A model generated the notes under the pieces. That model did no database searches and was not told where the DNA came from. It saw nothing but the letters and a program-made list of their open reading frames with translations. A stretch of 64,000 bases of DNA from Komagataeibacter sp. FNDCF1. GTDB lineage: Bacteria > Pseudomonadota > Alphaproteobacteria > Acetobacterales > Acetobacteraceae. The stretch covers positions 2,650,501-2,714,500 of the forward strand of contig NZ_JAIWOT010000001.1 in assembly GCF_021295335.1 (NCBI RefSeq), given 5' to 3'. Below are positions 1,346-52,858 of this stretch, piece after piece. The first letter of the stretch is position 1, and each line of letters opens with the position of its first letter. The position numbers and the translations under genes are program-made.

Positions 1346-1423
1346 GAAGTTTGTGGGTGCCGCCTTTTTTCAAAAGGCGGCGTTCCTTGAAGCTTTCTGG
1401 AAAAAAGCTTCACCAGAAACTTC
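1346..1423 (+). repeat. Intergenic three-arm repeat, copy A (forward)
   Basis: Copy of a 78-bp repeat found six times in this window. The ends GAAGTTTGTGGGT (1346-1358) and ACCAGAAACTTC (1412-1423) form an imperfect inverted repeat. Inside are arm 1, GCCGCC...GGCGGC (1359-1381), and arm 2, GAAGCTTT...AAAGCTTC (1389-1411). It lies 20 bases after the tldD stop and 9 bases from the pdxJ stop, at a convergent junction. The short A-rich flank on its left (CATAAAAAAT) recurs beside copy D. Confidence 0.85.
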
Positions 1424-1432
1424 TTATCTTTT

Positions 1433-2182
1433 TCAAGCACTTCGTGCCGCCGCCATTACCGCCTTCATGTGGCGGATCACGGCGGGCAACCCGTCAAAGA
1501 TGGCCTGACCGATCAGGAAATGCCCGATGTTCAGTTCCATCACCTGCGGCAGCGCCGCGATCGGGCTGACGTTCCCGTAGGTCAGGCCATGGCCCGCATG
1601 GACCTCCAGCCCACACCGCGCCGCGTGCTCCGCCCCGGTGGCCAGGCGGCCCAGTTCCACGGCGCGCGCGGTGTCATCCGCCGCATCGGCATAGGCGCCG
1701 GTATGCAGTTCCACCACGGCGGCCCCCAGTTGCGCTGCGGTTTCGATCTGCGCGGCATCGGGGTCGATGAACAGGGAGACCCGGATCCCCGCATCGCGCA
1801 TGCGGGCAATGCGTGGGGCAAGGCTGCCTGCCTGCCCGCGCACGTCCAGCCCCCCTTCGGTCGTGACTTCCTGCCGCCGCTCGGGCACCAGGCAGCAGGC
1901 ATGCGGGCGCAGGCGGGTGGCGATGGTGGTCATTTCCGCGGTGGCCGCCATTTCCATGTTCAGTGGAATGGAAAGTTCCGCGCGCAGGCGTTCAAGGTCC
2001 GCATCGCGGATATGGCGACGGTCCTCACGCAGATGGGCGGTAATGCCGTCCGCCCCGGATTGCTGGGCCAGCAGCGCCGCCAGCACCGGGTCCGGATGCG
2101 TGCCGCCACGCGCGTTGCGCACCGTGGCCACGTGGTCGATGTTCACGCCCAGCCGGATCGTGGCGCAAGGGAATGTGCTCAT
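1433..2182 (-). CDS. pdxJ: Pyridoxine 5'-phosphate synthase PdxJ
   Basis: Cytoplasmic TIM-barrel enzyme that condenses 3-amino-2-oxopropyl phosphate with 1-deoxyxylulose 5-phosphate to give pyridoxine 5'-phosphate, the last ring-forming step of DXP-dependent vitamin B6 synthesis. The 249-aa length is normal. The N-terminal family signature is clear ([16 protein letters not shown] near residue 13), as are [16 protein letters not shown] and the later [14 protein letters not shown] segment. Its ATG overlaps the pdxA stop by 4 bases, so the two are almost certainly translationally coupled, and PdxA supplies its substrate. This tight pdxA-pdxJ pairing supports both calls. Confidence 0.97.
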
Positions 2183-3168
2183 GTCGGGTTCCTGTGTTCG
2201 GCCATCCGGGCTGCCATGTGCAGGGCGGCGACAAGGCTGGCGGGATCGGCCACGCCGCGTCCGGCTATGTCAAAGGCGGTGCCGTGATCGGGCGATGTAC
2301 GGATGATCGGCAGCCCCAGCGTGGTGTTGACCCCCTGTGTCATGTCGATGGTCTTGAGCGGGATCAGCGCCTGGTCATGGTACATGCACATCGCCACGTC
2401 GTAGCGTGCCCGCGCGGGGGGCGTGAACATGGTGTCCGGCGGCCATGGGCCGGTAATGTCCATGCCCTCGGCACGCAGGGTTTCCATGGCGGGCATGATG
2501 ATGGTCTGTTCTTCCGTCCCCATGCTGCCGCTCTCGCCCGCATGCGGGTTCAGCCCGGCCATGGCGATGCGGGGGGCCGCAATGCCGAAATCGCGGACCA
2601 GCGCCGCATGGGTGGTGCGGGTGGCGGCAATGATGCCATCGGTGGTCAGTTCATCCAGCGCACGGCGCAGGCTGACATGGATGGTAACGGGCACCACGCG
2701 CAGTTCCGGGCAGGCCAGCATCATCACCTCGCGCCCCGGCACGTTGCACAATGCGGCAAGGTATTCGGTATGGCCGGGATAGGCGAAGCCCGCCTTCTTC
2801 AGCACGATCTTGCTGATCGGGTTGGTCACCACCGCGCCAGCCTGTCCGTTGCGGGCCAGTTCCACCGCGCGTGCGATGGATGTGGTGATGGCGTCCGCAT
2901 TGCGGCTGTCTGGCTGGCCAGGCAGCACGGTGGTGGCAAGGGCAACCGGCAGCACGGGCACCGCGTGGGCAAACACCTCCGGTGTCTCCCCGATGGTCCC
3001 GATCTCGCGCACCGGCACGCCGTGGCGGCCGATCAGGCCCGCGTCGCCAATCACGGCAAAGCGGGCCGGGCCCGTCCGCATGGCCTGCCACGCGCCTGCC
3101 GTGATTTCCGGCCCGATCCCCGCCGGGTCGCCCATGGTCAGGGCGAGGGGAGGGTGGACCTCAGCCAT
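2179..3168 (-). CDS. pdxA: 4-hydroxythreonine-4-phosphate dehydrogenase PdxA
   Basis: NAD-dependent oxidation and decarboxylation of 4-phosphohydroxy-L-threonine, giving the amine partner used by PdxJ. The family N-terminus [16 protein letters not shown] is present, together with the metal-binding histidine regions (GHTEYLA and the [12 protein letters not shown] segment). I chose the ATG at 3168, which gives 329 aa, the usual length. It lies inside the last codons of the upstream dipeptidase gene (8-base overlap) and suggests coupling. An in-frame ATG at 3186 would add six residues. The gene sits in a leftward dipeptidase-pdxA-pdxJ operon. Confidence 0.96.
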
Positions 3169-4567
3169 CGTGCCGCACCATGGCATGCAGGATACGGACC
3201 CACGAGCGCATGCCCTTGTGGAAGGAAGTCAGTTCATATTTTTCGTTAGGCGAATGGGCACGGTCATCATCCAGCGCAAAACCCACCAGCAGGGCGGGCA
3301 TGCCCAGTATGCGCTGCATGTCGCCCGCCACCGGGATCGAGCCGCCACAGCCAATGGTCACGGCAGGCGTGTTCCATTCATCCCCCAGTGCGCGCAGGGT
3401 CGGCTGCAGGCCGAACGCGTCATCGGGCAGCGCGCTGGCGGTCGACCCGCCACAGGGGGTGAAGGTCACCGTGCAGTCGGCGGGCAGCATGGCGCGGACA
3501 TGGGCACAGAAGGCCTGCCGGATATGGACGGGGTCCTGCCCCGCCACCAGCCGGAACGAGACCTTGGCCACCGCCTCGCCCGGCAGCACGGTCTTGAACC
3601 CTTCGCCGGTATAGCCGCTGGAAATGCCGTTGATCTCGAAGCTGGGGCGGCACCATGTCTGTTCGATGGCGGTATAACCCTTCTCACCCACCGGGACGGA
3701 CAGCCCGACCTCACCCAGGAAGGTCGCGTCATCGGGCGCGATCTCGCGCCAGCGCGCACGCAGCGCGGCCGGGGGCTCTTCCACGCCCGTATAGAATCCG
3801 GGCAGTACGACACGGCCGGTTTCCCCGTCACGGATGGAGGACAGGATGCCGCACAGCAGTTCCGCCGGGTTGCGCGCGGCATTGCCGTACACGCCGGAAT
3901 GCAGGTCACGGCTTGCGCAGCGCAGATGGATTTCCTCCCCCAGCATGCCGCGTAGCGTGGTGGTGACGGCAGGCACGCCGGGCAGCATGGCGGTATCGCA
4001 GATCAGCCCCACATCGGCGCGCAGTTCGTCACGATGGCTGTCCATGAAGGGAACCAGGCTGGGGCCGCCGCATTCCTCCTCCCCCTCGATCAGGAGCGAG
4101 ATGCGCACCGGCATGGTGCCCGTGGTGGCGCGGATGGCGCGGATGGCCTCGATGAAGGTCATCACCTGACCCTTGTCGTCCGATGCCCCGCGCGCGACGA
4201 TGCGTTTTGCGCCATTCGTGCCGGTCACCAGTTTCGGCTCGAACGGGCCGCTGTCCCACAGGTTCAGCGGGTCGACGGGCTGCACGTCGTAATGGCCATA
4301 GAACAGCACATGCGGGCCGGCAGGTGGCGTCCGGTCATGGGCGACCAGAATGGGGTGGCCGGGTGTCGCGTGCAGGGTCACGTCGAACCCGAGTTCGTCA
4401 AGCTGGTCACGCAGCCACGCCGCCGCCCGCCTGCAGTCATCCGCATGTTCGGGCTGGGTGGAAATGCTGGGAATGCGCAGGAAGGTGAACAGCCGCTCCA
4501 GCGCCGCATCAAGCGTGCGGTCCGCCTGTTCCAGAACGGGAGCAAGGGAAGGGGAGGAACTGGTCAT
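3161..4567 (-). CDS. M20 family metallopeptidase (dipeptidase)
   Basis: Zinc-dependent peptidase of the M20/M25/M40 family, of the carnosinase-like dipeptidase type. Visible motifs are [11 protein letters not shown] (first metal site), [10 protein letters not shown] (bridging Asp), and [10 protein letters not shown] (catalytic Glu pair), followed by a lid domain and a C-terminal metal His region with [10 protein letters not shown]. The start at 4567 is preceded by GGAGA at a good distance. An upstream in-frame ATG at 4651 would add 28 residues without family character. The protein is 468 aa. It is the first gene of the operon with pdxA and pdxJ. A physiological substrate cannot be read from sequence. 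Confidence 0.92.
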
Positions 4568-4888
4568 GCATTCTCCGTTATCTGGCAGGCATCGGATGGC
4601 CCGGACGGGCAGTATGCGATTTTGCCTGTTATGGGGGTAAAAGCAACTCACCCACAGGGGGTGGCAAGCATGCGCCGGCCCGGCCGTTGCCTGCCCGCCA
4701 TCACGCAGGGATAACGCAGGGGTGGCGGGCGCGCTTCATGTCCGTGCATGAGACCGGAGCGGCGTGCCCCTGCTTTTTGGCCGGCATTTTCAGACACCCT
4801 GAAGAAGAATCTGGAATTGAGGAATTGATGGCGGCAGGAAATCATTTATCATGGCGAGAATTAAAATAAGGTCTTGAAGTTATTCCAG
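4568..4888. other. Intergenic region, dipeptidase / membrane protein
   Basis: About 320 bases between divergent genes. The right half (from about 4790) is noticeably AT-richer than its surroundings and probably carries the promoter of the downstream membrane-protein gene. Short open frames here show no family character or convincing ribosome binding site. I see no repeat or terminator. Confidence 0.5.
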
Positions 4889-6439
4889 ATGACAGTTGGG
4901 AAAAACCTAGGATACCTGTTCCTGTCATTTGCCTTGACCGTTATTTCGTATTTTTTTTATACGAGAATATTTTTCAACGCGCCCGGCGCCATCGGGATAA
5001 TCATCAATTCGGACAGTCTCGTCCTTCCCCAGATGGGGTGGGAAATGTCGCATGTACCGGATGCCTGGCGGCATTTCCAATGGCCCCGTGTTCCAAGCCT
5101 GTTTCCGGACATGCTCTGGTTCTGGGGGGCTGAAGGGCTCGGGGTCGGCTGGCGTCCTGCCTGGAACGGTTTTTTCCTTTTTTCCCTGTCGCTGATGACC
5201 CTGTGCCTGGGGGCCGTCGTCTGGCGTATGGGAACGCTGTCTTTCAGCAGGGCGCTTTTCGTGTCTGCCCTGACCCTGGCGGCATATGTGGCGTTCGTGT
5301 CGTCCGGGGCCCATGTCAGTGCATTGAGCGATATATCGGGCCTGCTTGAAATATTCCTGCCCGCCTTCCATGGCAGTTCATTCATGCTGTCCCTGCTGGC
5401 CGCGACGACAGCGAACATGGCCTGTGACCGGGGCGACCGGATTGCGGATTTTGTTCCGACCGCCTGTCTGTGCGCTGTCGCGACCTTCAGCGACCCCATG
5501 TTCATCACGACGTTCGCCGTTCCCTTTTTCCTGTCGACCCGTATGTTCGCGGTGCGGCACAGGGGGGCGAATTCACTCACCAGGTCCATGTGCCAGGGGG
5601 TCGGGATCCCTTTGTTCCTGCTGTTCTCATGCCTTGTCGGGTTCGTGGGTCAGGAATTTCTGTACAAGCAAAGCCTGTCCGGCACGGTCAAGCATTTCCC
5701 GCTGGTTGCTTTTCCAGAAATCATATATTTTTCATTGTTCAGCGTCCGGGCATCCTTCTGTCTGGTATTTGCTCTGCTGTCGGTCATACCGTTCCTGAAA
5801 ATCCGGTCAGAAATATCCGCAAATAAAATCAGGCCACACAGGGAACGACTGTTCTACCATGGCTATGCGGCATCAATCATATCCCTGTTCATATTGTCGG
5901 TATCATATGTTGACCTGTCAATTTACAGATATGCATTGCCAGCGACATGGTGGTCGATAATCTTCATCATTTCAAATATTGATTCGGAATCTGTCAGGAA
6001 AATATCGAAGATTTTTCTGGTATCCCTGCCATTCATCATCCTGTTTTTCATATTCATGGGCTGGAAGGGCGACAGGAATGCACTGGATGGATGGCACGCC
6101 CCGCTGGAAACCTGCATCTCGCGCAATCATGACGGGCTGGGACTGCGGGACGGACTTGCCGGTTACTGGGTATCGCGGAAAATAGAAGCGTCATCGGACT
6201 GGAAACTGCAGGTCGAGCAGGTAACGGGCGGGAACCATATGTTCATATGGGGCAATAACCCGGACCTTTATACGCACGGCCTGCACCGTTTTGATAAACC
6301 CCCGTATTTCAATTACGTCATCGATGATGGAAAGGATGAGATGCAGGGATTGTACAGGGAGATCGGCCCGCCTTCCCATATCCTGCACTGCCCTGAAGCG
6401 GATGTGCTGATGTTCAGCCGGCAGATCAGGGTGGAATGA
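4889..6439 (+). CDS. Multi-pass membrane protein, possible GT-C-type glycosyltransferase
   Basis: About 516 aa with roughly ten hydrophobic segments spread through the first 400 residues, then a soluble C-terminal part of about 115 residues that is likely periplasmic. An acidic/aromatic loop follows the first membrane segment (NSDSLVLPQMGWEM), the arrangement seen in polytopic GT-C glycosyltransferases and related polymer proteins, but no diagnostic motif is certain. The ATG at 4889 has a weak GAAG upstream, and a TTG at 4874 is the alternative start. Codon use is unusual for the window (ATA, AGA, many T-ending codons), which suggests acquisition by transfer. It is flanked by unrelated genes. 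Function is not known. Confidence 0.75.
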   Translation: MTVGKNLGYLFLSFALTVISYFFYTRIFFNAPGAIGIIINSDSLVLPQMGWEMSHVPDAWRHFQWPRVPSLFPDMLWFWGAEGLGVGWRPAWNGFFLFSLSLMTLCLGAVVWRMGTLSFSRALFVSALTLAAYVAFVSSGAHVSALSDISGLLEIFLPAFHGSSFMLSLLAATTANMACDRGDRIADFVPTACLCAVATFSDPMFITTFAVPFFLSTRMFAVRHRGANSLTRSMCQGVGIPLFLLFSCLVGFVGQEFLYKQSLSGTVKHFPLVAFPEIIYFSLFSVRASFCLVFALLSVIPFLKIRSEISANKIRPHRERLFYHGYAASIISLFILSVSYVDLSIYRYALPATWWSIIFIISNIDSESVRKISKIFLVSLPFIILFFIFMGWKGDRNALDGWHAPLETCISRNHDGLGLRDGLAGYWVSRKIEASSDWKLQVEQVTGGNHMFIWGNNPDLYTHGLHRFDKPPYFNYVIDDGKDEMQGLYREIGPPSHILHCPEADVLMFSRQIRVE

Positions 6440-6485
6440 CGCAGCAGGCTTCACCGTGAGCGTTTCATTCCATCCATGCGGGCAC

Positions 6486-6770
6486 TCAGCATTGTCCGTG
6501 CAGGAACCCCAGCGCGGGCAGGGGGCGCCATGCGCGCGGCAGGTCCGCGCGGCGGTAGGGGCGGATGCTGTAATGTGGTATCGCGATTTCATTGCGTTCA
6601 AGGAAATTCCGGTAGGCTGCGACCTGCCGGGTGCGCCATTCACAATCCGCCTCGGCGGCGGCGCGGGTGGGGTAGATGCTGGCGATGCGCGTGCCGCGCC
6701 GGGTTGTGGCCACCACCGCCCAGGATTCATCACGTCGCGCCACGGTCCGGAATGCGACAACCTTGCCCAT
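6486..6770 (-). CDS. Hypothetical small protein, 94 aa
   Basis: A small soluble protein beginning MGKVVAFRTVARRDE, basic overall, with an internal Ala-rich helix (TRAAAEADCEWRTRQVAAYR) and an Arg/Pro-rich C-terminus. The start at 6770 is preceded by a GGGG-type ribosome binding site. The reading frame has normal high-GC codon use and the opposite frames look poorer, so I accept it as real. It is divergent from the LapA-domain gene. I recognise no domain and infer no function. Confidence 0.6.
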   Translation of the reverse strand: MGKVVAFRTVARRDESWAVVATTRRGTRIASIYPTRAAAEADCEWRTRQVAAYRNFLERNEIAIPHYSIRPYRRADLPRAWRPLPALGFLHGQC

Positions 6771-6914
6771 TGTTCTGCCCCTGTCCCGGTTGCAAGGGGG
6801 CCGGCAACGGCCCTGCCGTTCAGGCAAGCATGGCTGTGGCGTGCAATGCAAGCAGTGCGCGGCATGAATTGATTTTCTTGCAGGGGCCGGTTGTTGGGGG
6901 TAGGGAACAGGATC

Positions 6915-7337
6915 ATGATACGTCTTTTCATTACCCTGCCCGTCATCGTGGCACTGATCGTTTTCGCGGCCTGCAATCAGGCGCCGGTGGAACTGTCATG
7001 GCTGGAATGGAAATGGACGTCATCACCCGGCGTGCTGGCCCTGCTGGTGGCCGCCCTGTTCTATGCCACCGGGTCGGCCAGTGTCTGGATCGTGGTGCTG
7101 CGCCAGATGCGCCGCGCCCGCCGCGCCGAACAGGAACTGCGCACCCTGCGTGCTCGCCTGCCGGAAAATGACGTGACCACGCCCCGGACGCCGGGGCTGG
7201 CTTCGGCCCCGGCCAGTTCACCCATGGTGCAGGCCTATGCGGCGGGGCAGGCCACGCCAGCGCAACCGGCGCCAGTGGCCGAGGGCACTGCGGTAACGGA
7301 GTCCCCCGTCACGCCGGAACGTCCCCCGGCTTCCTGA
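6915..7337 (+). CDS. LapA-domain (DUF1049-like) inner-membrane protein
   Basis: A 140-aa protein with two N-terminal transmembrane segments (residues about 1-20 and 37-58), separated by a short loop containing PVELSWLEWKWTSSP. A charged Arg-rich coiled-coil-like stretch (RRARRAEQELRTLRARL) follows, then a Pro/Ala/Thr-rich tail. This matches small lipopolysaccharide-assembly LapA-domain proteins (two helices and a cytoplasmic coil), which in E. coli act with LapB on LpxC stability. The start at 6915 has AGGA close upstream. It lies 52 bases before pyrF and may share its transcript. The LapA-pyrF neighbourhood is common in alphaproteobacteria. Confidence 0.75.
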   Translation: MIRLFITLPVIVALIVFAACNQAPVELSWLEWKWTSSPGVLALLVAALFYATGSASVWIVVLRQMRRARRAEQELRTLRARLPENDVTTPRTPGLASAPASSPMVQAYAAGQATPAQPAPVAEGTAVTESPVTPERPPAS

Positions 7338-7389
7338 GCTTTTCAGCCTCTCCTGTCATAACCCGCTGCCTGTTTCTGGAGTGCCGCCA

Positions 7390-8097: not shown

Positions 8098-8116
8098 ACC
8101 GTACGGAGGGGACATC

Positions 8117-8746
8117 ATGACGGTGCGGGTCAAGATATGCGGCCTGCGGGACCGCGCGGGGCTGGATGCCGCCTGTGCCGCCGGGGCGGACTGGGTGGGG
8201 TTCGTGTTTTTTGCCCGTTCACCGCGTCATGTCACGCCGGAGGGCGCTGGCAGTCTGGCGCGTACCATGCTCCCCGCCGGGCCACGGCGCATCGGTCTGT
8301 TTGTCCGGCCCACGGATGACGAGATCCGGCATGTCCTGGACCACGTGCCCCTTGATGGCCTGCAGGTTTATGGTGATGCGGTGCGTGCCACGACCATCCG
8401 GGCGCGTTTTGGCCTGCCGGTGTGGCAGGCCGTGGGCGTGGCCAGCCCGGCCGACCTGCCGCATGGCTGCGCGGTGGACGGGCTGGTTGTCGAATCATGC
8501 CCCCCCGCCGGGGCTGAGCGGCCGGGCGGCAACGCCCGCAGTTTTGACTGGACCCTGACGGCACGGTGGCAGGCACCTGTACCATGGCTGCTGGCCGGGG
8601 GGCTGACCCCTGATAACGTCCAGCGCGCCATACGGCAGAGCGGGGCGCGCGCCGTCGATGTCTCATCGGGCGTGGAAACCGCCCCGGGCATCAAGTCCGC
8701 GTCACTGATCCGCCAGTTCGTGCAGGCGGCCCGCAGCGGGGCCTAA
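8117..8746 (+). CDS. trpF: Phosphoribosylanthranilate isomerase TrpF
   Basis: Amadori rearrangement of N-(5-phosphoribosyl)anthranilate in tryptophan synthesis. It begins VKICGLRD, the family signature with the catalytic Cys, and ends with phosphate-binding LAGGLTPDNV and AVDVSSGVE motifs. The protein is 209 aa. A strong GGAGGGG lies six bases before the ATG. Unlike in many alphaproteobacteria, no trpB/trpA follows. Its stop codon overlaps the stop codon of the opposite-strand Gly-rich gene (8743-8745), leaving no room for a separate terminator between them. Confidence 0.97.
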   Translation: MTVRVKICGLRDRAGLDAACAAGADWVGFVFFARSPRHVTPEGAGSLARTMLPAGPRRIGLFVRPTDDEIRHVLDHVPLDGLQVYGDAVRATTIRARFGLPVWQAVGVASPADLPHGCAVDGLVVESCPPAGAERPGGNARSFDWTLTARWQAPVPWLLAGGLTPDNVQRAIRQSGARAVDVSSGVETAPGIKSASLIRQFVQAARSGA

Positions 8747-9087
8747 CGGTAATAACCGCCGTAATAGCCCCCGTAATAAGCCGGTGGCGGTGGTGGCGGC
8801 GGCGGGTAGCCATAGGCTGCATAGGGCGGTGGCGGATAGCCATAACCATAGGCGGGATAGGGATAGCCGTAACCCCGGTAGCGGTAGGGCGACATGGCAA
8901 CACCCAGCGCCGTGCCCGCGGCAATTCCCATGCCGAAGCCACCCCAGCCCCAGCCCGGACGCCAGCCCCAGCCGCCTCCATGCCATCCGCCACCCCAGCC
9001 GCCGCCGCGCCAGGCATAGGCGGCAGGCGCGGGCATGACGCCTGCCAGCCCCACGGACACAGCCAGCAAAAGGGCCAATTTACGCAT
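8743..9087 (-). CDS. Exported Gly/Tyr/Pro-rich protein
   Basis: A 114-aa protein with a clear Sec signal peptide (MRKLALLLAVSVGLAG, cleavage near AYA-W). A GGGW/WHGGGWGW-rich part, a short hydrophobic glycine-zipper-like stretch (GMGIAAGTALGVAM) and a Tyr/Pro-rich repeat tail (YGYP, PPPP, YYGGYYGG) follow. AGGAAG lies at a good distance before the ATG at 9087. Low complexity rules out a firm family. Similar exported Gly-rich proteins occur in acetic acid bacteria, and the protein encoded at 12249-12788 has the same design. A surface or envelope role is a guess. Confidence 0.75.
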   Translation of the reverse strand: MRKLALLLAVSVGLAGVMPAPAAYAWRGGGWGGGWHGGGWGWRPGWGWGGFGMGIAAGTALGVAMSPYRYRGYGYPYPAYGYGYPPPPYAAYGYPPPPPPPPAYYGGYYGGYYR

Positions 9088-12248: not shown

Positions 12249-12788
12249 TCAGGGCCGGTCGCAGCTTTCCGTCAGGTCGTTGTAAACCTGTCCCGCCGGG
12301 CATGTGGGGCGCGGTTTTGGCGCGGCGGCCGGTGGGCTGACCAGTGTGGACAGGTCCCTGTCATACACGGAATCATCCTCGGGCGCCGTATTGCCGGTAG
12401 CGTTATAGATTTCAGGCGAGGCGCGGTAGCTGGCGCTGGCGGCAGCAGCCCCCATCGCGGCACCGGCATAGGCACCACCCCATCCCCAGCCCCAACCGCC
12501 GCCCCAGCCACCCCAGCCCCATGGATAGGCAGGATACCCCCATCCCCAGCCGGCATAGGCGGGCGAATAGTAACCACCCCAGCCACCCCATCCCCAGCCG
12601 CCGCCACGCCAGCCCCCCCCGCGCCAGCCACCACCACCGCCATGCCAGTCGCCGCCACGGCCGCCGCCGCCACCATGCCAGCCACCACCCCCGCCGCCAT
12701 GGGGTCCGGCATGGGCCTGCGGGGTCAGTAGCCCGCACATGGCCAGCGCCAGCATCGCGCCTGTCGCGACATGTTTCAGCTTGTGCAT
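12249..12788 (-). CDS. Exported Gly/Trp-rich protein
   Basis: A 179-aa protein with a Sec signal peptide (MHKLKHVATGAMLALAMCGL, cleavage after AHA). A long GGGGGWHGGGGG / GWGWGGWGG low-complexity domain, a small hydrophobic segment (YAGAAMGAAAASASY) and a more ordinary C-terminal part with two cysteines (PTCPAGQVYNDLTESC) follow. AGGAATGG precedes the ATG at 12788. The same design (signal peptide, Gly/Trp block, glycine-zipper segment) is found in the protein at 8743-9087. No enzymatic function is suggested. Confidence 0.75.
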   Translation of the reverse strand: MHKLKHVATGAMLALAMCGLLTPQAHAGPHGGGGGGWHGGGGGRGGDWHGGGGGWRGGGWRGGGWGWGGWGGYYSPAYAGWGWGYPAYPWGWGGWGGGWGWGWGGAYAGAAMGAAAASASYRASPEIYNATGNTAPEDDSVYDRDLSTLVSPPAAAPKPRPTCPAGQVYNDLTESCDRP

Positions 12789-21083: not shown

Positions 21084-21456
21084 GCCCGGGCGGGCGGGGC
21101 GGACGTGTCATGCCGTCATCGGCCTGCCGTAACAAAGCCGGCAGGCTTATCTGCTGGATGGCGGGTCTTTTTGATGACGGGAATGCTGGCAGGGCCGTGC
21201 CCGGCGGACTTTTTCTGTCCTGTGCCGTGCCTGCAGACTGGCTATCCCGCGCCGGAACAGGCAGGCAGGGCTGACGCATGGGTGTTGATCCGGAGGGAAT
21301 GGTCATGATCCACGGCATTCGCCGGGGCCAGCGACTGCATTGCCATGATGGATGCCGAGATGGACCAGATATGGCGCACCATAACGGATGGCACGGTGAT
21401 CATCATCAAGCCGTGACAGGTGTGCATCCCCGTTGGGGGAGGAAACTTAAAAAAAG
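21084..21456. other. Intergenic region without recognisable gene
   Basis: About 370 bases between the end of the FUSC gene and the terminator shared with accC. Short open frames on both strands have no protein character or ribosome binding sites. No repeat or RNA gene is evident. Confidence 0.5.
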
Positions 21457-21485
21457 GGCGGCACCGGAATGGTGCCGCCTTTTTT
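21457..21485. terminator. Bidirectional intrinsic terminator (FUSC gene / accC)
   Basis: Perfect 9-bp stem GGCGGCACC / GGTGCCGCC around the loop GGAAT. It has TTTTTT on the plus side and an A-run (about 21449-21455) that supplies U's on the minus strand. It lies 31 bases beyond the accC stop, so it most clearly serves aroQ-accB-accC. Confidence 0.9.
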
Positions 21486-21515
21486 CATGGTTCCTGTTTT
21501 CAGGTGTGGCCGGGT

Positions 21516-26997: not shown

Positions 26998-27075
26998 GAT
27001 GTTTCTGGTGAAGCTTTTTTCAGAAAGCTTCACGGAACGCCGCCTTTTTTCAAAAAGGCGGCGTCCAAGAACTTG
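26998..27075 (-). repeat. Intergenic three-arm repeat, copy B (reverse)
   Basis: 78-bp copy in the opposite orientation to copy A. It runs GATGTTTCTGGT, then arm GAAGCTTT...AAAGCTTC, a spacer, arm GCCGCC...GGCGGC, and ends TCCAAGAACTTG. The A/T-rich flank on its right, read on the minus strand, is TTGATAAAAATTAC, like the left flank of copy E. It starts 35 bases after the decarboxylase stop. Confidence 0.85.
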
Positions 27076-33132: not shown

Positions 33133-33215
33133 GAATTTCCAAAAGTCGCCTTTTTTCAAAAAGGCAATGTTTCCTGAATCTTTTTGAAAAAAGCTTTACC
33201 GCAAACGACGTCTTC
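33133..33215 (+). repeat. Intergenic three-arm repeat, copy C (degenerate)
   Basis: The most diverged copy. Arm 1 (GCCTTTTTTCAAAAAGGC) is intact as a hairpin, arm 2 (GAATCTTTTTG...AAAAAGCTTT) is decayed, and only parts of the outer stem remain. It sits at the convergent junction of the LysR gene and the 313-aa protein gene. Confidence 0.7.
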
Positions 33216-42460: not shown

Positions 42461-42540
42461 AAAGTTTTCAGGGGTCACCTTTTTTCAGGAAGATGACGTT
42501 CTTCTGAAGCTCTCCAAAAAAGCTTCACCAAGAACCCCTT
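42461..42540 (+). repeat. Intergenic three-arm repeat, copy D (forward)
   Basis: Diverged copy. Arm 1 is GTCACCTT...AAGATGAC, where both sides have changed from GCCGCC/GGCGGC yet still pair. Arm 2 is GAAGCT...AGCTTC. The outer stem is partly kept. The left flank CATAAAAAATGAT matches that of copy A. Convergent junction of rbfA and the MCE gene. Confidence 0.8.
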
Positions 42541-44764: not shown

Positions 44765-44788
44765 ACCGGATGATCAATGGAGAGAATG

Positions 44789-45356: not shown

Positions 45357-47495
45357 ATGTTTAATTATTTTCGCAAGGAAATCGAATGGGGCGGCCGCCC
45401 GCTGGTGCTGGAAACGGGCAAGATCGCCCGCCAGGCCGACGGTGCAGTTGTCGTGACCTATGGCGATACGGTGGTGCTGTGCACGGCCGTTGGCGCCAAG
45501 AGCGTCAAGCCGGGGCAGGACTTCTTCCCGCTGACGGTCAACTATCAGGAAAAGGCCTATGCCGCGGGCAAGATCCCCGGTGGCTTCTTCAAGCGTGAAG
45601 GCCGCCCGAGCGAGGCCGAGGTCCTGAACTCGCGCCTGATCGACCGCCCGCTGCGCCCGCTGTTTCCCGAGAACTTCCGCAACGAAGTGCAGGTCATCGC
45701 CACCGTGCTCAGCCACGATATGGAGAACGACCCCGCCGTTGTGGCGCTGATCGGCTGTTCGGCCGCGCTGACGCTGTCGGGCATTCCGTTCTTCGGCCCC
45801 GTGGGTGCGGCCCGCGTGGGTTACAGCAACGGCAAATACGTACTGAACCCGACCATTTCCCAGCTCAAGGAAAGCGAACTGGACCTGGTCGTGGCCGGTA
45901 CGTCCGAAGGCGTGCTGATGGTCGAGTCCGAGGCGGTGGAACTGTCCGAGGACGTGATGCTGGGCGCCGTGACCTTCGGCCACGAAGCCTTCCAGCCGGT
46001 GATCGACCTGATCATCGACCTGGCCGAAAGTGCGGCAAAGGCCCCGTGGGACCTGGCCGAGCCGACGGCTGAGGAAGTCAAGCTGCGCAAGAAGGTGGAC
46101 AAGGCCGGTCGCGCCCTGATCGCCGATGCCTACAAGGAACGCGCCAAGCAGGTGCGTTACAAGAAGGTTGCCGCGGCGCGTGAAGCCATCCTGGCGAAGA
46201 TTGGCGAAGATGATGCCGCTGCCGCCAAGCCCATGATCAAGGATCTGGAAGCCGATGTGGTCCGCACCGAAGTGCTCGACACCGGTTTCCGCATCGATGG
46301 CCGTGATCTGGAAACGATCCGCCCGATCGTGTCCGAAGTCGGCATCCTGCCGCGTGCCCATGGCTCCGCCCTGTTTACCCGTGGGGAGACGCAGGCCCTT
46401 GTGGTCGCGACCCTTGGCACCGGGCAGGACGAGCAGATCGTGGATGCGCTGGAAGGCGAATACCGCAACAACTTCATGCTGCACTACAACTTCCCGCCCT
46501 TCTCGGTGGGTGAGTGCGGGCGCATGGGTTCTCCCGGTCGCCGTGAAATCGGCCATGGCAAGCTGGCATGGCGTGCGATCCACCCGCTGCTGCCGGGCAA
46601 GGACACCTTCCCGTACACCATGCGCGTGGTGTCCGAGATCACGGAAAGCAACGGCTCGTCCTCCATGGCGACCGTATGCGGCACGTCGCTGGCGCTGATG
46701 GATGCGGGTGTGCCGCTCAAGCGCCCGGTGGCGGGTATCGCCATGGGCCTGATCAAGGAAGACGAGGATTTCGCCGTCCTGTCCGACATCCTGGGTGATG
46801 AAGACCATCTGGGTGACATGGACTTCAAGGTGGCCGGCACCGAGCAGGGTGTCACCGCGCTGCAGATGGACATCAAGATCACGTCGATCACGCCGGAAAT
46901 CATGAAGATCGCGCTGGGGCAGGCCCGTCAGGGTCGCCTGCACATTCTGGGTGAGATGGCCAAGGCGCTGACCGAAGGCCGCACGGATGTCTCCTCCTCC
47001 GCCCCGAAGATCACCACGATCTCGGTTCCGAAGGAAAAGATCCGTGATGTGATCGGTCAGGGCGGTAAAGTTATCCGTGAGATCGTTGAATATTCGGGTG
47101 CCAAGATCGACATCAACGATGATGGCACGATCATGATCGCCGCATCCTCCGACGATCAGGCCGAAAAGGCCATCGAGCGGATCCGTGGCATCACGGCCGA
47201 ACCCGAAGTGGGCCACATCTATAACGGCAAGGTGGTCAAGACCGCCGATTTCGGGGCGTTCGTGAACTTCCTTGGCCCCCGTGACGGGCTGGTTCACATC
47301 TCCGAACTGGCGGAAGGGCGCGTTTCCAAGACGACCGACGTCGTCAAGCAGGGAGACGAGGTGAAGGTGAAGGTGCTGGGCTTTGACGATCGCGGCAAGG
47401 TCAAGCTGTCCATGCGCGTGGTTGACCAGAAGACCGGTGCCGACATTACCGACACCGTGGGCGCCAGGCCCGGCCGTGCCCCCGGCGCGCGGTAA
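45357..47495 (+). CDS. pnp: Polynucleotide phosphorylase PNPase
   Basis: Phosphorolytic 3'-5' exoribonuclease of RNA decay. 712 aa: two RNase PH domains (residues about 10-145 and 310-450, the second with [14 protein letters not shown]), an all-helical linker, KH domain ([20 protein letters not shown]) and S1 domain ([21 protein letters not shown]). The start [11 protein letters not shown] at 45357 matches the family; the frame is open upstream through the leader without homology. Follows rpsO in the same direction. Confidence 0.98.
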
Positions 47496-47579
47496 GACGC
47501 GGGCCCCGGCCTACTTAACCCGGCGGGATGGGGGTAGCACAGGCCGCACCCTGCCGCCGGGCAGATACATGACGATGGA

Positions 47580-49004
47580 ATGGTGATGAAGCCGATCAAT
47601 GCGATCCGCATGGGCGGAACGGATATTCTGCCCCTGGTAGAAGGGGGGAAGGGCGTCTCGATTTCGACCGGTGTGTCCGCCGGGCACTGGGCGGCGGCGG
47701 GCGGTGCCGGCACGATCTCGATCGTGAATGCCGATTCCTATGACGAGAACGGCAACATCGTTCCCCAGACCTATCACGGCAGGACCCGGCGTGAACGGCA
47801 TGAGGAACTGGTCGATTACGCCATTCGTGGCGGCATTGACCAGGCCCGCATCGCGCATGAACTTGCCGGCGGCAGGGGGCGGATACACGCCAACATCCTG
47901 TGGGAAATGGGTGGGGCCGAACGGGTCATTACCGGTGTGCTGGAAGGGGCTCCGGGCCTGATCCAGGGGCTGACCTGTGGCGCGGGCATGCCGTACCGCC
48001 TGTCGGAAATCGCGGCGCGCTTCGGCATCCATTACTATCCCATCGTATCTTCCGCCCGCGCGTTCAACGCCCTGTGGCGCCGTTCATACAACAAGACGGC
48101 GGAACTGCTGGGCGGCGTGGTGTACGAGGACCCGTGGCGCGCTGGCGGCCATAATGGCCTGTCCAACACCGAAAACCCGCTGGCGCCGGAAGACCCGTTC
48201 CCCCGCGTGCTGGCGCTGCGCAAGCAGATGCGTGCCTTTGGCCTGGATGACACCCCCATCATCATGGCCGGTGGCGTATGGTGGCTGGAGGAATGGCAGG
48301 ACTGGATCGACAGTCCCGAACTGGGGCCGATCGTCTTCCAGTTCGGTACCCGCCCGCTGCTGACGCGTGAAAGCCCGATTCCCGATGCATGGAAGCGCCG
48401 CCTGCTGACGCTGAAGAAGGGGGATGTGTTCCTCAACCGCTTCTCGCCTACGGGTTTCTATTCCTCTGCCGTGAACAACACCTTCCTGCGCGAACTGCGC
48501 GGGCGGTCGGAGCGGCAGGTACCGTTCTCGCCCGAGGCCGTGGGCGAGCATACCGCAGCCCTGGCCATTGGCGCGCGCGGGCGGCAGGTCTTTGTCACTC
48601 CCGCCGACCGTCAGCACGCACAGTTGTGGATGGAAGAAGGCCATACCGAGGCCATGCGCACGCCAGACAACACGCTGGTGTTCGTAAGCCCCGAAAAGGC
48701 GCGTGAGATCCTGGCTGATCAGGGGGCCTGCATGGGCTGCCTGTCCGAATGCCGCTTCTCCAACTGGTCGCAGCGCCCGCCCGCCTATTCCAACGGGCAC
48801 AAGGCGGACCCGCGTTCCTACTGCATCCAGAAAACCCTGCAGGCGGCAGCCCACGCCCATGGGCCGGATCAGGATGCGGTGATTGACAACAACCTCATGT
48901 TTGGCGGCACCAATGCGTGGCGGTTCGCGACCGATCCGTTCTATGCCAATGGCTTCGTGCCCACCGTGGCGCAGCTGCTGGAACAGATCATGACCGGTCG
49001 CTAA
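47580..49004 (+). CDS. NMO-family flavin oxidoreductase with C-terminal Cys cluster
   Basis: 474 aa, FMN-dependent TIM-barrel of the nitronate monooxygenase / FabK-like family. Visible are GTDILPLVEGGKGVSIS at the N-terminus, LIQGLTCGAGMPYRLSEIA, PIIMAGGVWW and the GPIVFQFGTRPL phosphate-binding end. The length exceeds the 320-350 aa of ordinary nitronate monooxygenases. The extra C-terminal part has four cysteines in C-X2-C-X3-C-X23-C order (residues 384, 387, 391, 415), which could bind an iron-sulfur cluster or zinc. The true substrate is unknown. Starts at 47583 and 47586 are also possible. Confidence 0.85.
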   Translation: MVMKPINAIRMGGTDILPLVEGGKGVSISTGVSAGHWAAAGGAGTISIVNADSYDENGNIVPQTYHGRTRRERHEELVDYAIRGGIDQARIAHELAGGRGRIHANILWEMGGAERVITGVLEGAPGLIQGLTCGAGMPYRLSEIAARFGIHYYPIVSSARAFNALWRRSYNKTAELLGGVVYEDPWRAGGHNGLSNTENPLAPEDPFPRVLALRKQMRAFGLDDTPIIMAGGVWWLEEWQDWIDSPELGPIVFQFGTRPLLTRESPIPDAWKRRLLTLKKGDVFLNRFSPTGFYSSAVNNTFLRELRGRSERQVPFSPEAVGEHTAALAIGARGRQVFVTPADRQHAQLWMEEGHTEAMRTPDNTLVFVSPEKAREILADQGACMGCLSECRFSNWSQRPPAYSNGHKADPRSYCIQKTLQAAAHAHGPDQDAVIDNNLMFGGTNAWRFATDPFYANGFVPTVAQLLEQIMTGR

Positions 49005-49028
49005 GCACCATTATTGATAAAAAAGAAT

Positions 49029-49106
49029 GAAAGTTTTTGGGTGCCGCCTTTTTTCAGAAAGGCGGCATTCCCTGAAGCCTTTTTCAAAAGGCTTCACCAA
49101 AGCTTC
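49029..49106 (+). repeat. Intergenic three-arm repeat, copy E (forward)
   Basis: Well-kept 78-bp copy. Outer ends are GAAAGTTTTTGGGT and ACCAAAGCTTC, arm 1 is GCCGCC...GGCGGC, and arm 2 is GAAGCC...GGCTTC. The C-G pair in arm 2 replaces the T-A pair of the other copies, a compensatory change. Left flank TTGATAAAAAAG. Convergent junction of the flavin oxidoreductase gene and rdgB. Confidence 0.88.
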
Positions 49107-49117
49107 TTTCTGCTTTG

Positions 49118-49147
49118 AAGGCCGGCCTCATGAGGCCGGCCTTTTTT
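49118..49147. terminator. Palindromic terminator (rdgB side / plus strand)
   Basis: Perfect inverted repeat AAGGCCGGCCTCA / TGAGGCCGGCCTT (49118-49143), followed by T's on the plus strand. Lies 17 bases beyond the rdgB stop and 12 bases after repeat copy E. It could end transcripts from both sides. Confidence 0.85.
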
Positions 49148-49164
49148 ATGCTGGATGCGGCAGG

Positions 49165-49785
49165 CTATGCCGCGTCCTTTGGCAGGCAGGCATTGCGGAA
49201 CAGGGCGAAGGCCAGCCCGCGATGGCTGATGGCGTTCTTTTCCCCGTCCGTCATGTCGGCAAAGGTGCGGGTGCCCGTGCCGGGGGCAAAAAGCGGGTCA
49301 TAGCCATGGCCATTCGTGCCATGGGGCGGCCAGACGACATGGCCGTCAATCCGGCCCTCGAATGTTTCGGTATGTCCGTCAGGCCATGCCAGGCACAGCA
49401 CGGAAATGAACCATGCCCCCCGGTCGGGGTTATCGCCAATCCGGTCATGGATACGGCGCATCGCATCGGGGTAGTCCTTGCCCGGCCCGGCCCAGCGGGC
49501 GGAGAAAATTCCCGGCGCGCCGCCAAGTGCTGAAACACAGAAGCCGGAATCATCGGCCAGTGCGGGCAGGTTCGCGGCTTTTGCTGCGGCCACGGCCTTG
49601 ATCGCGGCGTTACCCGCAAAGTTGTCGGCCGTCTCCTCCGGTTCCGGCAGCGAAAGATCCCCCGCGGACCGGACATGGATGCCGTAGCCGCCAAGGAGCG
49701 CCGCGAATTCCGCAATCTTGCCCCGGTTATGGGTAGCCAGCACCAGTGTATCGCCCCGGTTCAGGCGGCTGGAATGTCGTGTCAT
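49165..49785 (-). CDS. rdgB: XTP/dITP pyrophosphatase RdgB (Ham1 family)
   Basis: Removes non-canonical purine nucleotides (dITP, XTP) from the pool. 206 aa with [14 protein letters not shown] (triphosphate-binding), [26 protein letters not shown] (catalytic Asp), GYDPLFAPG and the [11 protein letters not shown] ending. Its start overlaps the rph stop by 4 bases (ATGA); the rph-rdgB pair is widely conserved and supports both calls. Confidence 0.97.
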
Positions 49786-50510
49786 GCCTTGAGCGCCTCT
49801 TCCACCGTGGCGGTCTGGATGCGGAACAGTTCCGCGGTTCCGGTGCGGGCAAGCCGCATGAGGGTATTGAACTCGGCCTCGGTAAAGGGGTCCTGTTCGG
49901 CGGTGCCCTGTATTTCCACAATACCGCCATCGGCGGTCAGGACAAAATTGGAATCGGCGCGCGCGTTGCTGTCTTCCCTGTAATCCAGGTCAAGCACCGC
50001 GCCATCTTCCGTCAGCCCGCATGATACGGCGGCGACCTGCCCCCTGAGCGGCACGGTATCCAGCGTGCCCGCGCGCACAAGCGTTTCCAGCGCAAGGCGC
50101 AGCGCCACCCATGCCCCGGTAATGGCGGCGCAGCGCGTGCCGCCATCGGCATTCAGCACGTCGCAATCCACCGTGATCGAGATTTCCCCCAATGCCTTCA
50201 GGTCGGTCACGGCACGCAGCGAGCGGGCAATCAGGCGCTGGATTTCCTGGGTGCGGCCGCTCTGCCTGCCCTTTGCGGCTTCACGCGGGCCACGGCTGTG
50301 GGTGGCGCGCGGCAGCATGCCATATTCCGCCGTGACCCAGCCCTGTCCCCTGCCGCGCAGGAAGGACGGGACACGCATCTCCACGCTGGCGGCGCACAGG
50401 ACTTCGGTCCCGCCCATGCGGATCAGGGCGGAACCTTCCGCGTGGCGGGCAAAGCCGGTCTGGATGAAGACGGGACGCAGGGCGTCAATGGCACGGCCGG
50501 ATGGGCGCAT
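49782..50510 (-). CDS. rph: Ribonuclease PH
   Basis: Phosphorolytic trimming of tRNA 3' ends. 242 aa, normal length. [14 protein letters not shown] start, [29 protein letters not shown], the phosphate-binding [18 protein letters not shown] stretch and [18 protein letters not shown] are all family motifs. Start at 50510 (MRPSGR) fits homologs; an upstream extension to 50588 does not. Operon with rdgB; divergent from hrcA across about 150 bases. Confidence 0.98.
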
Positions 50511-50661
50511 GGGGGTAACTCCGCAAGGTGATGGGGCGGCATAGCGTGCAATCCCCCTGCATTGCCAGTCCCGCGTGGGCAGGGGCATGGATCATCTGTT
50601 ATACTGGTGGGCATGCGAATGGTCGCATGGCGGATGAATGCGCAAAACAGGAGGCATGGCG

Positions 50662-51735
50662 ATGGAAACCCGACCACCGGTATCGCAGCCGGCCCTGCTC
50701 TCCGGGCTTGACCCGCGATCTGCCGCGATCCTGCGTGAGATCGTGGAGCAGTATGTCGAAACGGGTGAGCCGATGGGCTCGCGCACGCTTTCGCAGCGCC
50801 TGCCGCTTTCGCTCTCGCCGGCCACGATTCGCAATGTCATGGCCGACCTGACCGATGCGGGGCTGCTGTTTTCCCCCCACACCTCGGCGGGGCGCCTGCC
50901 GACGGAGAAGGGCGTGCGGCTGTTTGTCGATGGCCTGCTGCAGTTTGGCAGCCTGAGCGAGGACGAGCGCGAGAGCATCGCGGGCATGCTGGACGTAAAG
51001 GGCCGCTCGCTGGAGGATACGCTGGCGCAGGCGTCCTCCATGCTGTCGGGCCTGTCCTCGGCGGCGGGGGTGGTCATGGCGCCCAAGAGCGATGGCGCCA
51101 CCATCAAGCATATCGAATTCGTGGCGCTTGGTCCGGGGCGGGCACTGGTCATCCTGGTCAGTGCCGACGGGCAGGTGGAAAACCGCGTGATCGAGATTCC
51201 GCCCGGCCTGCCGCCTTCCGCACTGGTGGAGGCGGGGAACTACCTCAACGCCCACCTGTCCGGCCAGACGCTGGACCGCCTGCGCGAGACGGTCAGCACC
51301 GCCATGACGGCCAACCGCAACGAACTGGACCACCTGACGGCGGAAGTCGTGTCCAGTGGCCTCGCCACATGGAGTGACGCGGACGAGCGCGGGGGCACCC
51401 TGTTCATACGCGGGCAGGGGCGCCTGCTGGCCGATGTGACCGAGATCGAGCGCCTGACCACCATCCAGATGCTGTTCGAACGGCTGGAGACGCAGGAGAC
51501 CATGCTCCGCCTGCTCGACCTTGCGCGCGAATCCGAAGGGGTGCGGATCTTCATCGGGGCGGAAAGCGGGCTGTTCGGCATGGCGGGCATGTCGGTGGTG
51601 GTGGCGCCCGCACGCACCGACAGCAACCGCATCGTTGGCGCGATCGGGGTGATCGGACCCACGCGCATCAATTATGCCCGCATCATTCCCGTGGTGGACT
51701 ATACCGCCCGCGTGATCGGCCGCATGCTGGGCTGA
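50662..51735 (+). CDS. hrcA: Heat-inducible transcription repressor HrcA
   Basis: 357 aa. N-terminal winged helix (about residues 18-85; SAAILREIVEQYVETGEPMGS, LSPATIRNVMADLTDAGLL, HTSAGRLPTEKGVRLFVD), followed by the GAF-like/inserted-dimerisation domains. HrcA represses groE and dnaK operons through CIRCE operators and needs GroEL for activity. GGAGG lies seven bases before ATG 50662. The grpE-dnaK genes that often follow are absent; an aldo/keto reductase gene follows instead. I saw no CIRCE inverted repeat in the upstream region. Confidence 0.95.
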   Translation: METRPPVSQPALLSGLDPRSAAILREIVEQYVETGEPMGSRTLSQRLPLSLSPATIRNVMADLTDAGLLFSPHTSAGRLPTEKGVRLFVDGLLQFGSLSEDERESIAGMLDVKGRSLEDTLAQASSMLSGLSSAAGVVMAPKSDGATIKHIEFVALGPGRALVILVSADGQVENRVIEIPPGLPPSALVEAGNYLNAHLSGQTLDRLRETVSTAMTANRNELDHLTAEVVSSGLATWSDADERGGTLFIRGQGRLLADVTEIERLTTIQMLFERLETQETMLRLLDLARESEGVRIFIGAESGLFGMAGMSVVVAPARTDSNRIVGAIGVIGPTRINYARIIPVVDYTARVIGRMLG

Positions 51736-51855
51736 GGCGACGGGATTGCAATGCAACCCGCGCGGCTGGCGGTCCTTAATGGAAGGGCACAGACCAGCCA
51801 CACGCGCCCTGCGCTCGCGCGGGTGCGCGATGGCCCAACGCGCAAGGAGAATGGC

Positions 51856-52743
51856 ATGTTCACGCCCGATGCACGGCAGTCCGGATCGTTCATGATTGGT
51901 GGTGACCTGGAGGTCACACGGCTTGGTTTTGGCGCCATGCGCATCACCGGCCCCGGCATATGGGGTGAACCGGCCGACCGGAACGCGGCCCTCGCCACCC
52001 TGCGCCGCCTGCCTGAACTGGGCATCAACTTCGTTGATACGGCAGATGCTTATGGCCCGTTTGTCAGCGAGGACCTGATCCGTGAGGCGCTGCATCCCTA
52101 TACAAACACCATCATCGCCACCAAGGGCGGCCATACCCGCCACGGCCCGAACATATGGAAGCCGGTGGGCAACCCGGACTACCTGCGCCAGTGCGTGCTG
52201 ATGAGCATGCGCAGGCTGGGGGTGGAGCGCATCGACCTGTGGCAGCTGCACCGCGTGGGGGCCGACTGCACGCCCGAACAGCAGTTCGAGGCCATTGCCG
52301 CCATGCGCGCGCAGGGGCTGATCCGTCATGTCGGCCTGTCCGAAGTGACGGTGGAGATGATCGAGCGTGCGCGGCTGTATTTTCCCGTTGCGACCGTCCA
52401 GAACCGCTTCAACCTCGTCAACCGGTATTCCGAGGACGTGCTGGATTACTGCACGGAGGAGAATATCGGCTTCATCCCATGGGCGCCGCTGGCGGCGGGC
52501 AGCCTGACGAAGGGCGATACCCTGCTGACCCGCCTGGCCAGTGAGAAAGGTGTCCAGCCCGGCCAGATCGCGCTCGCATGGCTGCTGCGGCGCGCGCCGG
52601 TCATGCTGCCCATTCCCGGCACCGGCAGCCCCGACCACCTGGCCGATAACGCGGCGGCCGCCGCCATTGAACTGAGTGACGAGGAATTCCGCCAGCTTGA
52701 TAACGATGGCCGGGCCGAATGGGCCAGCCGGAACGATGCCTGA
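51856..52743 (+). CDS. Aldo/keto reductase
   Basis: 295-aa NADPH-dependent reductase with a TIM-barrel. Catalytic tetrad residues are visible: Asp/Tyr in [14 protein letters not shown], Lys in IIATKGG, and His in LWQLHRVG. The C-terminal cofactor-binding part is [30 protein letters not shown] lies six bases before ATG 51856. The substrate is not predictable. Downstream is repeat copy F. It may be read with hrcA (120-base gap). Confidence 0.93.
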
Positions 52744-52780
52744 CAGAAAGGCCATATTTGAAAATCCGTTAAAACATAAA

Positions 52781-52858
52781 GAAGTTTTTGGTGAAGCTTT
52801 TTTCGAAAAGCTTCAGGAAACGCCGCCTTTTTGAAAAAAGGCGGCACCCGAAAACTTT
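52781..52858 (-). repeat. Intergenic three-arm repeat, copy F (reverse)
   Basis: 78-bp copy in reverse orientation: GAAGTTTTTGGT, arm GAAGCTTTT...AAAAGCTTC, spacer AGGAAAC, arm GCCGCC...GGCGGC, ending ACCCGAAAACTTT. Starts 37 bases after the aldo/keto reductase stop, before mrcA. Confidence 0.88.

What the first reader, a model, noticed from the sequence alone, without database searches (positions are those of the whole stretch)
1346..52858. Six-copy family of ~78-bp intergenic repeats that can fold as a three-way junction
Copies at 1346-1423 (A), 26998-27075 (B), 33133-33215 (C), 42461-42540 (D), 49029-49106 (E) and 52781-52858 (F). Seen directly: terminal inverted repeats (consensus GAAGTTTTTGGGT / ACCAAAAACTTC) enclosing two hairpin arms, GCCGCC...GGCGGC and GAAGCT...AGCTTC. 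A, B, E and F are 78 bp each. Four are forward, two reverse; all are intergenic just after a gene end, and A, C, D and E sit between convergent genes. An A-rich left flank (TTGATAAAAAAG / CATAAAAAAT) seems shared. I know no published name for it; it resembles REP/BIME or MITE elements in style, but has no transposase here.
Basis: seen in the sequence. Interest (0 to 1): 0.85.

Follow-up and report, generated by a model that had tools for sequence, protein, structure and literature searches.

The report
Three-way-junction repeats at gene ends
Vinegar and cellulose-making bacteria carry about a hundred copies of a short, transposon-like DNA repeat that can fold into a three-armed shape; it sits just behind genes, mostly where two genes end face to face, and at some sites it faces opposite ways in related species.

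Summary
A covariance model finds all six copies (59.8-100.6 bits). The genome holds at least 111 loci, all seen on the main contig. The element occurs in 19 of 19 genomes of the genus and in part of the family (73 of 397 genomes). Other Acetobacteraceae genera carry repeats with the same core ends but other arms, two or three of them. Of 247 unique copies classed, 161 lie between convergent genes, 78 behind a gene in tandem, 8 between divergent genes; none overlaps a predicted gene by more than 20 bp. Close species share most sites. At some sites orientation differs; one is a clean flip in place, and window copy E looks like another. No Rfam match, no Y1 transposase in 29 of 30 carriers, no longer element with the same ends in 2.2 Mb. 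Best reading: an old MITE-like element tolerated at gene ends. Mobility, target duplication and a terminator role are not shown. Ten literature searches found no description.

The parts
1346..1423 (+). copy A, 78 bp; between tldD/pmbA-type gene (+, ends 1325) and pdxJ (-, ends 1433)
   Evidence: R1 92.5 bits; Pfam PF19289, PF03740
26998..27075 (-). copy B, 78 bp; after an Orn/DAP/Arg decarboxylase gene (+, ends 26963), before a CopC-domain ORF (+): tandem
   Evidence: R1 86.6 bits; Pfam PF02784, PF04234
33132..33209 (+). copy C, decayed; between a lysR gene (+, ends 33084) and an ORF without Pfam match (-, ends 33252)
   Evidence: R1 67.4 bits; weak fold, z -1.18
42461..42538 (+). copy D, decayed; between rbfA (+, ends 42423) and an MlaD-domain gene (-, ends 42618)
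   Evidence: R1 59.8 bits; weak fold, z -1.88
49030..49107 (+). copy E; between a gene with a sub-threshold NMO match (+, ends 49004) and a Ham1-type gene (-, ends 49165); opposite orientation in the five of six compared relatives that hold a copy
   Evidence: R1 86.9 bits
52781..52858 (-). copy F, 78 bp; after an aldo/keto reductase gene (+, ends 52743), before a penicillin-binding-protein gene (+): tandem
   Evidence: R1 100.6 bits; Pfam PF00248, PF00912 and PF00905
1346..1356 (+). left terminal inverted repeat of copy A (outer stem, consensus RAAGTTTTTGG)
   Evidence: structure used
1413..1423 (+). right terminal inverted repeat of copy A (consensus CCAAAAACTTY)
   Evidence: structure used
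1359..1381 (+). arm 1 of copy A (GCCGCC...GGCGGC hairpin)
   Evidence: fold; pairs
1388..1412 (+). arm 2 of copy A (TGAAGC...GCTTCA hairpin)
   Evidence: fold; pairs

Best explanation
The repeat is an old, non-autonomous, MITE-like element of Acetobacteraceae. A terminal inverted repeat (core AAAGTTTTTgg / ccAAAAACTTT, plus a lineage-specific outer stretch) encloses two hairpin arms, in one genome sometimes three. Copies spread in ancestors of the genus and survive almost only where they do little harm, behind stop codons. Shown: repeat family, ends, arms, gene-end placement, sites shared between close species, decay of old copies, and copies that face opposite ways at the same site in related species. 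Inferred: that the family spread by transposition using the ends, possibly in single-stranded folded form; that flips arise by strand switching or gene conversion between the two ends; and that the folded transcript may secondarily shape mRNA 3' ends of both neighbours.
For: At least 111 loci in the genome, 89 with 40 bits or more; copies identical to each other over 78 bp at unrelated loci (L116 and L155; L038, L124 and L154). Placement: of 262 unique copies 247 could be classed, 161 convergent, 78 tandem, 8 divergent; 0 overlap a predicted gene by more than 20 bp, 14 by 1-20 bp. Background intergenic regions of 20 bp or more in the window and 40 syntenic stretches: 96 convergent, 346 tandem, 108 divergent. 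Patchy family distribution: 73 of 397 genomes, 20 of 102 genera at E <= 1e-4. Same core ends with different arms in other genera, so the ends are the conserved unit. At orthologous sites single changes that leave one of the two copies unpaired (203) outnumber those that keep both paired (69), as in decaying copies. Sites B and F are filled in G013 and G008 but hold no element in G002, G003 and G018.
Against: No partner transposase: Y1_Tnp absent in 29 of 30 genomes, and only 2 of 298 matches to the ends lie outside elements, none paired. No target-site duplication shown; the one site filled only in G018 (65831, absent in five others) shows no clean direct repeat by eye. Among three close species most 'absent' cases that I displayed keep a remnant (by eye), so no recent insertion is proven. 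The element is more conserved than its flanks (0.838 against 0.700 at 3-20 bp, higher in 50 of 66 pairs), and compensatory double changes exceed shuffles (26 against mean 13.5, maximum 22), which a useless relic would not need; gene conversion could also explain this.
Confidence: 0.58

Rival explanations
1. A domesticated bidirectional gene-end module: the RNA of either strand folds as much the same structure and ends or protects both converging transcripts; selection keeps it at gene ends.
For: In the window and 40 syntenic stretches 65 of 112 convergent junctions hold a copy, 65 of 86 among those with a gap of 60 bp or more. Median distances to the two stops are 21 and 26 bp, and 28 bp behind the stop in tandem. 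A-rich left and T-rich right flanks. Either strand folds alike (186 and 200 of 268). Element more conserved than flanks.
Against: Only 15 (forward) and 2 (reverse) of 270 copies score as a canonical hairpin-plus-T-tract terminator. Canonical terminators are only weakly rarer at gene ends with a copy: 27 of 136 against 14 of 42 convergent (gap 60 bp or more), 3 of 33 against 34 of 249 tandem; short gaps without a copy have 0 of 24 and 0 of 80 (own scanner). No orientation bias in tandem, 36 against 42. By eye no hairpin with a T run replaces it at A in G001, G012 and G017 or at B and F in G003 and G018. A junction with an insert is longer by construction, and the placement is also what avoidance of genes and promoters would give.
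Confidence: 0.3
2. A REP/BIME-type repeat spread by a RAYT (IS200/IS605-like) transposase.
For: High copy number, hairpins, intergenic placement behind genes.
Against: Y1_Tnp missing in 29 of 30 carrier genomes while the control search rings in 5 of 14 reference genomes. No GTAG or CGTC tag at the ends, 78 bp instead of 20-40 bp (definition from the abstract and passages of PMC3733652).
Confidence: 0.04
3. Ordinary intrinsic terminators that look alike by composition.
For: Position behind genes, GC-rich arms with T and A runs.
Against: Sequence alike over 78 bp at unrelated loci (BLAST E-values down to 1e-25 within the genome), low canonical-terminator score, shared ends across genera.
Confidence: 0.03

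Closest known systems
Correia/NEMIS elements of Neisseria
   Same: Short non-coding intergenic element with terminal inverted repeats and folded transcripts (PMC2229807, part 1 read); inversion of copies reported (passage in PMC10969869; primary paper not read).
   Different: The review table gives Correia 24-bp ends, TA termini and target duplication; here the ends differ, no target duplication was shown, and two or three arms branch from one stem.
RUP, ERIC and other bacterial MITEs
   Same: About 100 bp, terminal inverted repeats, many copies (PMC2229807).
   Different: No target duplication or IS partner found here; three-way-junction layout with exchangeable arms. Sequences were not compared.
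REP/BIME with RAYT
   Same: Extragenic, palindromic, predominantly downstream of genes (PMC3733652 passages).
   Different: No tag, no Y1_Tnp in 29 of 30 genomes, longer and branched. PMC3733652 says that CGTC repeats are missing from Acetobacteraceae.
SPRITE of Streptococcus pneumoniae
   Same: Repeat described as rho-independent-terminator-like (mentioned in PMC10969869).
   Different: Only the mention was read; sequence not compared.

Membership tests
MITE | short, non-coding, dispersed in many copies | tested here: met
   78 bp, 111 loci; 0 of 247 overlap predicted genes by more than 20 bp
MITE | terminal inverted repeats | tested here: met
   11-bp outer stem, 81.4% of cells paired in 12 copies
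MITE | target-site duplication at empty/filled sites | tested here: inconclusive
   one lineage-specific site, no clean direct repeat by eye; most other displayed absences keep a remnant
MITE | autonomous element with the same ends | tested here: not met
   2 of 298 matches to the ends outside elements in 2.20 Mb, no pair (some stretches of that set overlap); the rest of the genomes was not examined this way
MITE | presence/absence at orthologous sites | tested here: met
   B and F filled in G013 and G008, absent in G002, G003 and G018
REP/RAYT | 20-40 bp palindrome tagged GTAG or CGTC | tested here: not met
   78 bp, ends AAAG/CTTY; definition
REP/RAYT | RAYT (Y1_Tnp) gene in the genome | tested here: not met
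   0 in own genome, 1 of 30 carrier genomes
intrinsic terminator | GC-rich hairpin directly followed by a T tract | tested here: not met
   15 forward and 2 reverse of 270 copies
intrinsic terminator | transcripts end there | not testable with these tools
   no RNA data
Rfam families | score above gathering threshold | tested here: not met
   no match in window; best sub-threshold match in six loci 35.4 bits against a gathering score of 55, on an AT-rich relative

The most novel reading that the evidence does not exclude
A family-wide class of branched repeats in Acetobacteraceae: one conserved pair of ends carries interchangeable hairpin arms (two or three), copies flip in place, and the element has become the common bidirectional gene-end module of Komagataeibacter, present at most convergent junctions that have room for it.
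Probability: 0.3. Interest if true: 0.7.

Novelty: new variant of a known kind. Interest (0 to 1): 0.5.

Why it matters
It would be a new, abundant repeat family in industrially used bacteria (cellulose, vinegar), with an unusual layout: conserved ends, exchangeable arms and changes of orientation at a fixed site. That makes it a natural test of how folded DNA repeats spread without a visible transposase, and of whether such repeats become transcript-end signals. It also matters for assembly, strain typing and genetic engineering in these species.

Tried and rejected
REP/RAYT origin: rejected. Rfam membership: none. Phage carriage: no match in 50,697 phage records, none in viral contigs by one exact pattern. 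Autonomous partner with the same ends: none in 2.20 Mb. Private palindromic flanks (insertion into hairpins): suggested by single copies in other genera, rejected by shuffles in Komagataeibacter (2.63 against 2.65) and in four other genomes. Simple flip as the cause of every opposite orientation: not supported. In the first set opposite-orientation orthologs were no closer than paralogs (0.759 against 0.752 in 57 ordered comparisons; in the close trio 0.723 against 0.760 in 9). In the larger set with full-length copies they were a little closer (0.872 against 0.838, 6 pairs), but their near flanks matched less well than at same-orientation sites (0.64 and 0.64 against 0.73 and 0.75). Replacement by another copy therefore stays open.

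Corrections and drops: alignment A2 had some copies in the wrong orientation and was replaced by A3. Searches failed on script errors and were redone. The set of 270 copies held 8 duplicates; the recount has 262 unique copies, 15 of which could not be classed. Searches also counted four plasmid loci (L234-L237) that had been fetched because they hold a copy; one search leaves them out of the background. The earlier figures were 166, 79 and 8 of 253 and 68 against 48 junctions. In other genera the gene context was judged with a gene finder trained on Komagataeibacter: G177 10 tandem, 5 convergent, 2 divergent, 3 without call; G054 14 tandem, 1 convergent, 4 divergent; G172 10 tandem, 1 convergent; G218 3 tandem, 6 convergent; so the convergent excess is not repeated in three of these four genomes. 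The one G054 locus shorter than 900 bases was skipped there.
Full report
OBSERVATION. The six copies exist at the stated coordinates. A model built from 12 copies (six from the window, six from elsewhere in the genome) finds them with 59.8-100.6 bits; the best other match in the window, reverse strands of the copies apart, has 12.5 bits. A, B, E and F fold much better than shuffles (z -4.7 to -6.8); C and D are decayed (z -1.2, -1.9). Not every copy prefers the junction: B, and E on its - strand, fold as two hairpins. Of 268 copies folded, 186 give the three-way junction on one strand and 200 on the other; among 21 weak copies only 7 do.

GENES AROUND THE WINDOW COPIES. A: tldD/pmbA type and pdxJ, convergent. 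B: decarboxylase, then a CopC-domain ORF, tandem. C: lysR and an ORF without Pfam match, convergent. D: rbfA and an MlaD-domain gene, convergent. E: a gene with a sub-threshold NMO match and a Ham1-type gene, convergent. F: aldo/keto reductase, then a penicillin-binding protein, tandem.

COPY NUMBER. BLAST with copy A gives 43 matches in the genome, with only 40 candidates scored. R1 gives 141 matches, many of them the second strand of one copy; I merge them to 111 loci, 89 with 40 bits or more, 53 on + and 58 on -. Only 150 of 1524 candidates were scored, so 111 is a lower bound. All 111 lie on contig C1; by length 6.6 would be expected on C2-C5 (chance of none 0.0016). They are unevenly spread: 9 in the first Mb, 50 between 2.25 and 3.0 Mb.

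DISTRIBUTION. 19 of 19 genus genomes carry it, with 49 to 118 matches each, both strands counted and capped at 118 scored candidates. Of 5 sampled genomes from other genera of the family 1 matches weakly, and of 16 genomes from other families of the class none. In 397 Acetobacteraceae genomes 73 match at E <= 1e-4, from 20 of 102 genera (stricter filters, 11 candidates scored per genome). Six plasmid records match, five Komagataeibacter and one Novacetimonas; no phage record does. In the five plasmid records that I opened, the copy lies between convergent annotated genes in four (H2, H3, H4, H5; H4 and H5 look like the same locus in two strains) and between genes on one strand in H1, from an incomplete gene table.

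A WIDER SUPERFAMILY. In the four genomes sampled in number, the weak matches in other genera are real repeat families: G054 (69-72 bp), G177 (68-75 bp), G172 (84-96 bp) and G218 (87-126 bp) share the core ends AAAGTTTTT...AAAAACTTT and have other arms. My end-finder located 19 of 20 copies in G054, 19 of 20 in G177, 8 of 11 in G172 and 8 of 9 in G218; in one G218 copy (L360) it chose a wrong right end. In G172 the GC arm differs from copy to copy (GTGGGGGC, GTGGCCCC, GTGGACCC), each with its complement. Four of the eight G218 copies carry a third arm. Outer stretches beyond the core are lineage-specific: ATTAACA in G177, GGATA in G054, and TAAAAAATAATA on the left with TTTATGATTTT on the right in Komagataeibacter.

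PLACEMENT. After removal of 8 duplicates, 247 of 262 copies could be classed with a simple codon-model gene finder: 161 convergent, 78 tandem, 8 divergent; 0 overlap a predicted gene by more than 20 bp and 14 by 1-20 bp. In the window and 40 syntenic stretches alone: 39, 20 and 2 of 61, against a background of 96 convergent, 346 tandem and 108 divergent regions of 20 bp or more. Copies sit a median of 21 and 26 bp from the two stops, or 28 bp behind the upstream stop and 170 bp before the next start in tandem. Orientation relative to transcription is 36 to 42. Of 112 convergent junctions 65 hold a copy, all with a gap of 60 bp or more; of the 47 without one, 26 are shorter than 60 bp and 21 are not. 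The stretches come from seven genomes and share many sites, so the counts are not independent.

SITES IN RELATIVES. Site A in 19 genomes, read by eye: 8 filled as in the window, 3 filled in the other orientation with different neighbouring sequence, 1 relic, 3 without the element, 4 not placed because the two genes were not found together. For the six window copies: G013 4 same, 2 opposite; G008 5 same, 1 opposite; G018 1 same, 3 opposite, 2 absent; G002 4 opposite, 2 absent; G003 2 opposite, 3 absent, 1 not placed; G012 1 opposite, 5 absent (partial copies included). Copy E is opposite in the five of these six relatives that hold one; its near flanks line up by eye in G013 and G008, and turned round it is closer to its G013 counterpart than to any other G013 copy (0.859). 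In three closer species (91.5-93.4% alike at site A) over 380-480 kb each: G002 against G003 47 same, 10 opposite, 3 absent; G002 against G018 38, 4, 9. With full-length copies only: 64 same and 6 opposite pairs, from four sites. The cleanest case is G002 416393 against G003 409786: near flanks 0.92 and 0.80 alike, element 0.94 alike once turned. At the other three sites the near flanks match less well (0.44-0.68), so replacement is as likely there as a flip. Most displayed absences keep a remnant (by eye).

EVOLUTION. Same-orientation orthologs are little more alike than paralogs (0.848 against 0.813, 64 pairs), yet the element is more conserved than its flanks (0.838 against 0.700 at 3-20 bp and 0.746 at 21-60 bp; 66 pairs). 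Changes are fewer at paired positions (0.127) than at unpaired ones (0.189). Of 280 base pairs with one side changed, 203 are paired in only one of the two copies, 69 in both, 8 in neither; of 56 with both sides changed 26 are paired in both (shuffles: mean 13.5, maximum 22; 51 ortholog pairs). I read this as copies born folded and slowly decaying, with some constraint or conversion; the data do not separate the last two.

MECHANISM. Spread by transposition is inferred from dispersal, ends and patchiness. No transposase is identified: Y1_Tnp is found in 1 of 30 carriers, and matches to the ends outside elements are 2 of 298. Flips are most simply explained by strand switching or conversion between the inverted ends (inference); inversion of Correia elements is a precedent (passage in PMC10969869). 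A gene-end function is possible and untested: the element does not look like a canonical terminator (15 and 2 of 270), and canonical terminators are only slightly rarer where it is present (27 of 136 against 14 of 42).

LITERATURE. Ten searches listed no paper on such a repeat in acetic acid bacteria. I read passages of PMC4686929, PMC3733652 and PMC10969869 and the first of three parts of PMC2229807; the rest was seen as search listings only. Most subscription papers are not in that library.

Noticed in passing
L362, L363, L364, L368 (G218): Copies of 123-126 bp with a third, different arm between the two usual arms, while the ends stay the same.
   Followed up: partly
L262, L269, L279 and L349-L359 (G172): The GC arm differs between copies in one genome, with its complement changing along: covariation between paralogs.
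   Followed up: partly
G000 C1, 0-1.0 Mb against 2.25-3.0 Mb: Scored copies are very unevenly spread along the chromosome and none was seen on the other four contigs.
   Followed up: no
L193 (G010), site A: A relic of the element, cut to one end and part of an arm, now reads by eye as a small hairpin followed by a T run.
   Followed up: no
window 21450-21490: Near-perfect hairpin with an A run before and a T run after, in the junction 21083/21516 that lacks the element.
   Followed up: no
window 8932-9015 and 12477-12710: GC-rich low-complexity repeats (GCC/CCA units) in two separate stretches.
   Followed up: no
G003, site A: The two genes flanking copy A lie about 6 kb apart in G003, so the convergent junction is broken there.
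   Followed up: no
L369 (G174): The only Y1_Tnp gene among 30 carrier genomes, in a 140-codon open frame; not examined for nearby repeat ends.
   Followed up: no
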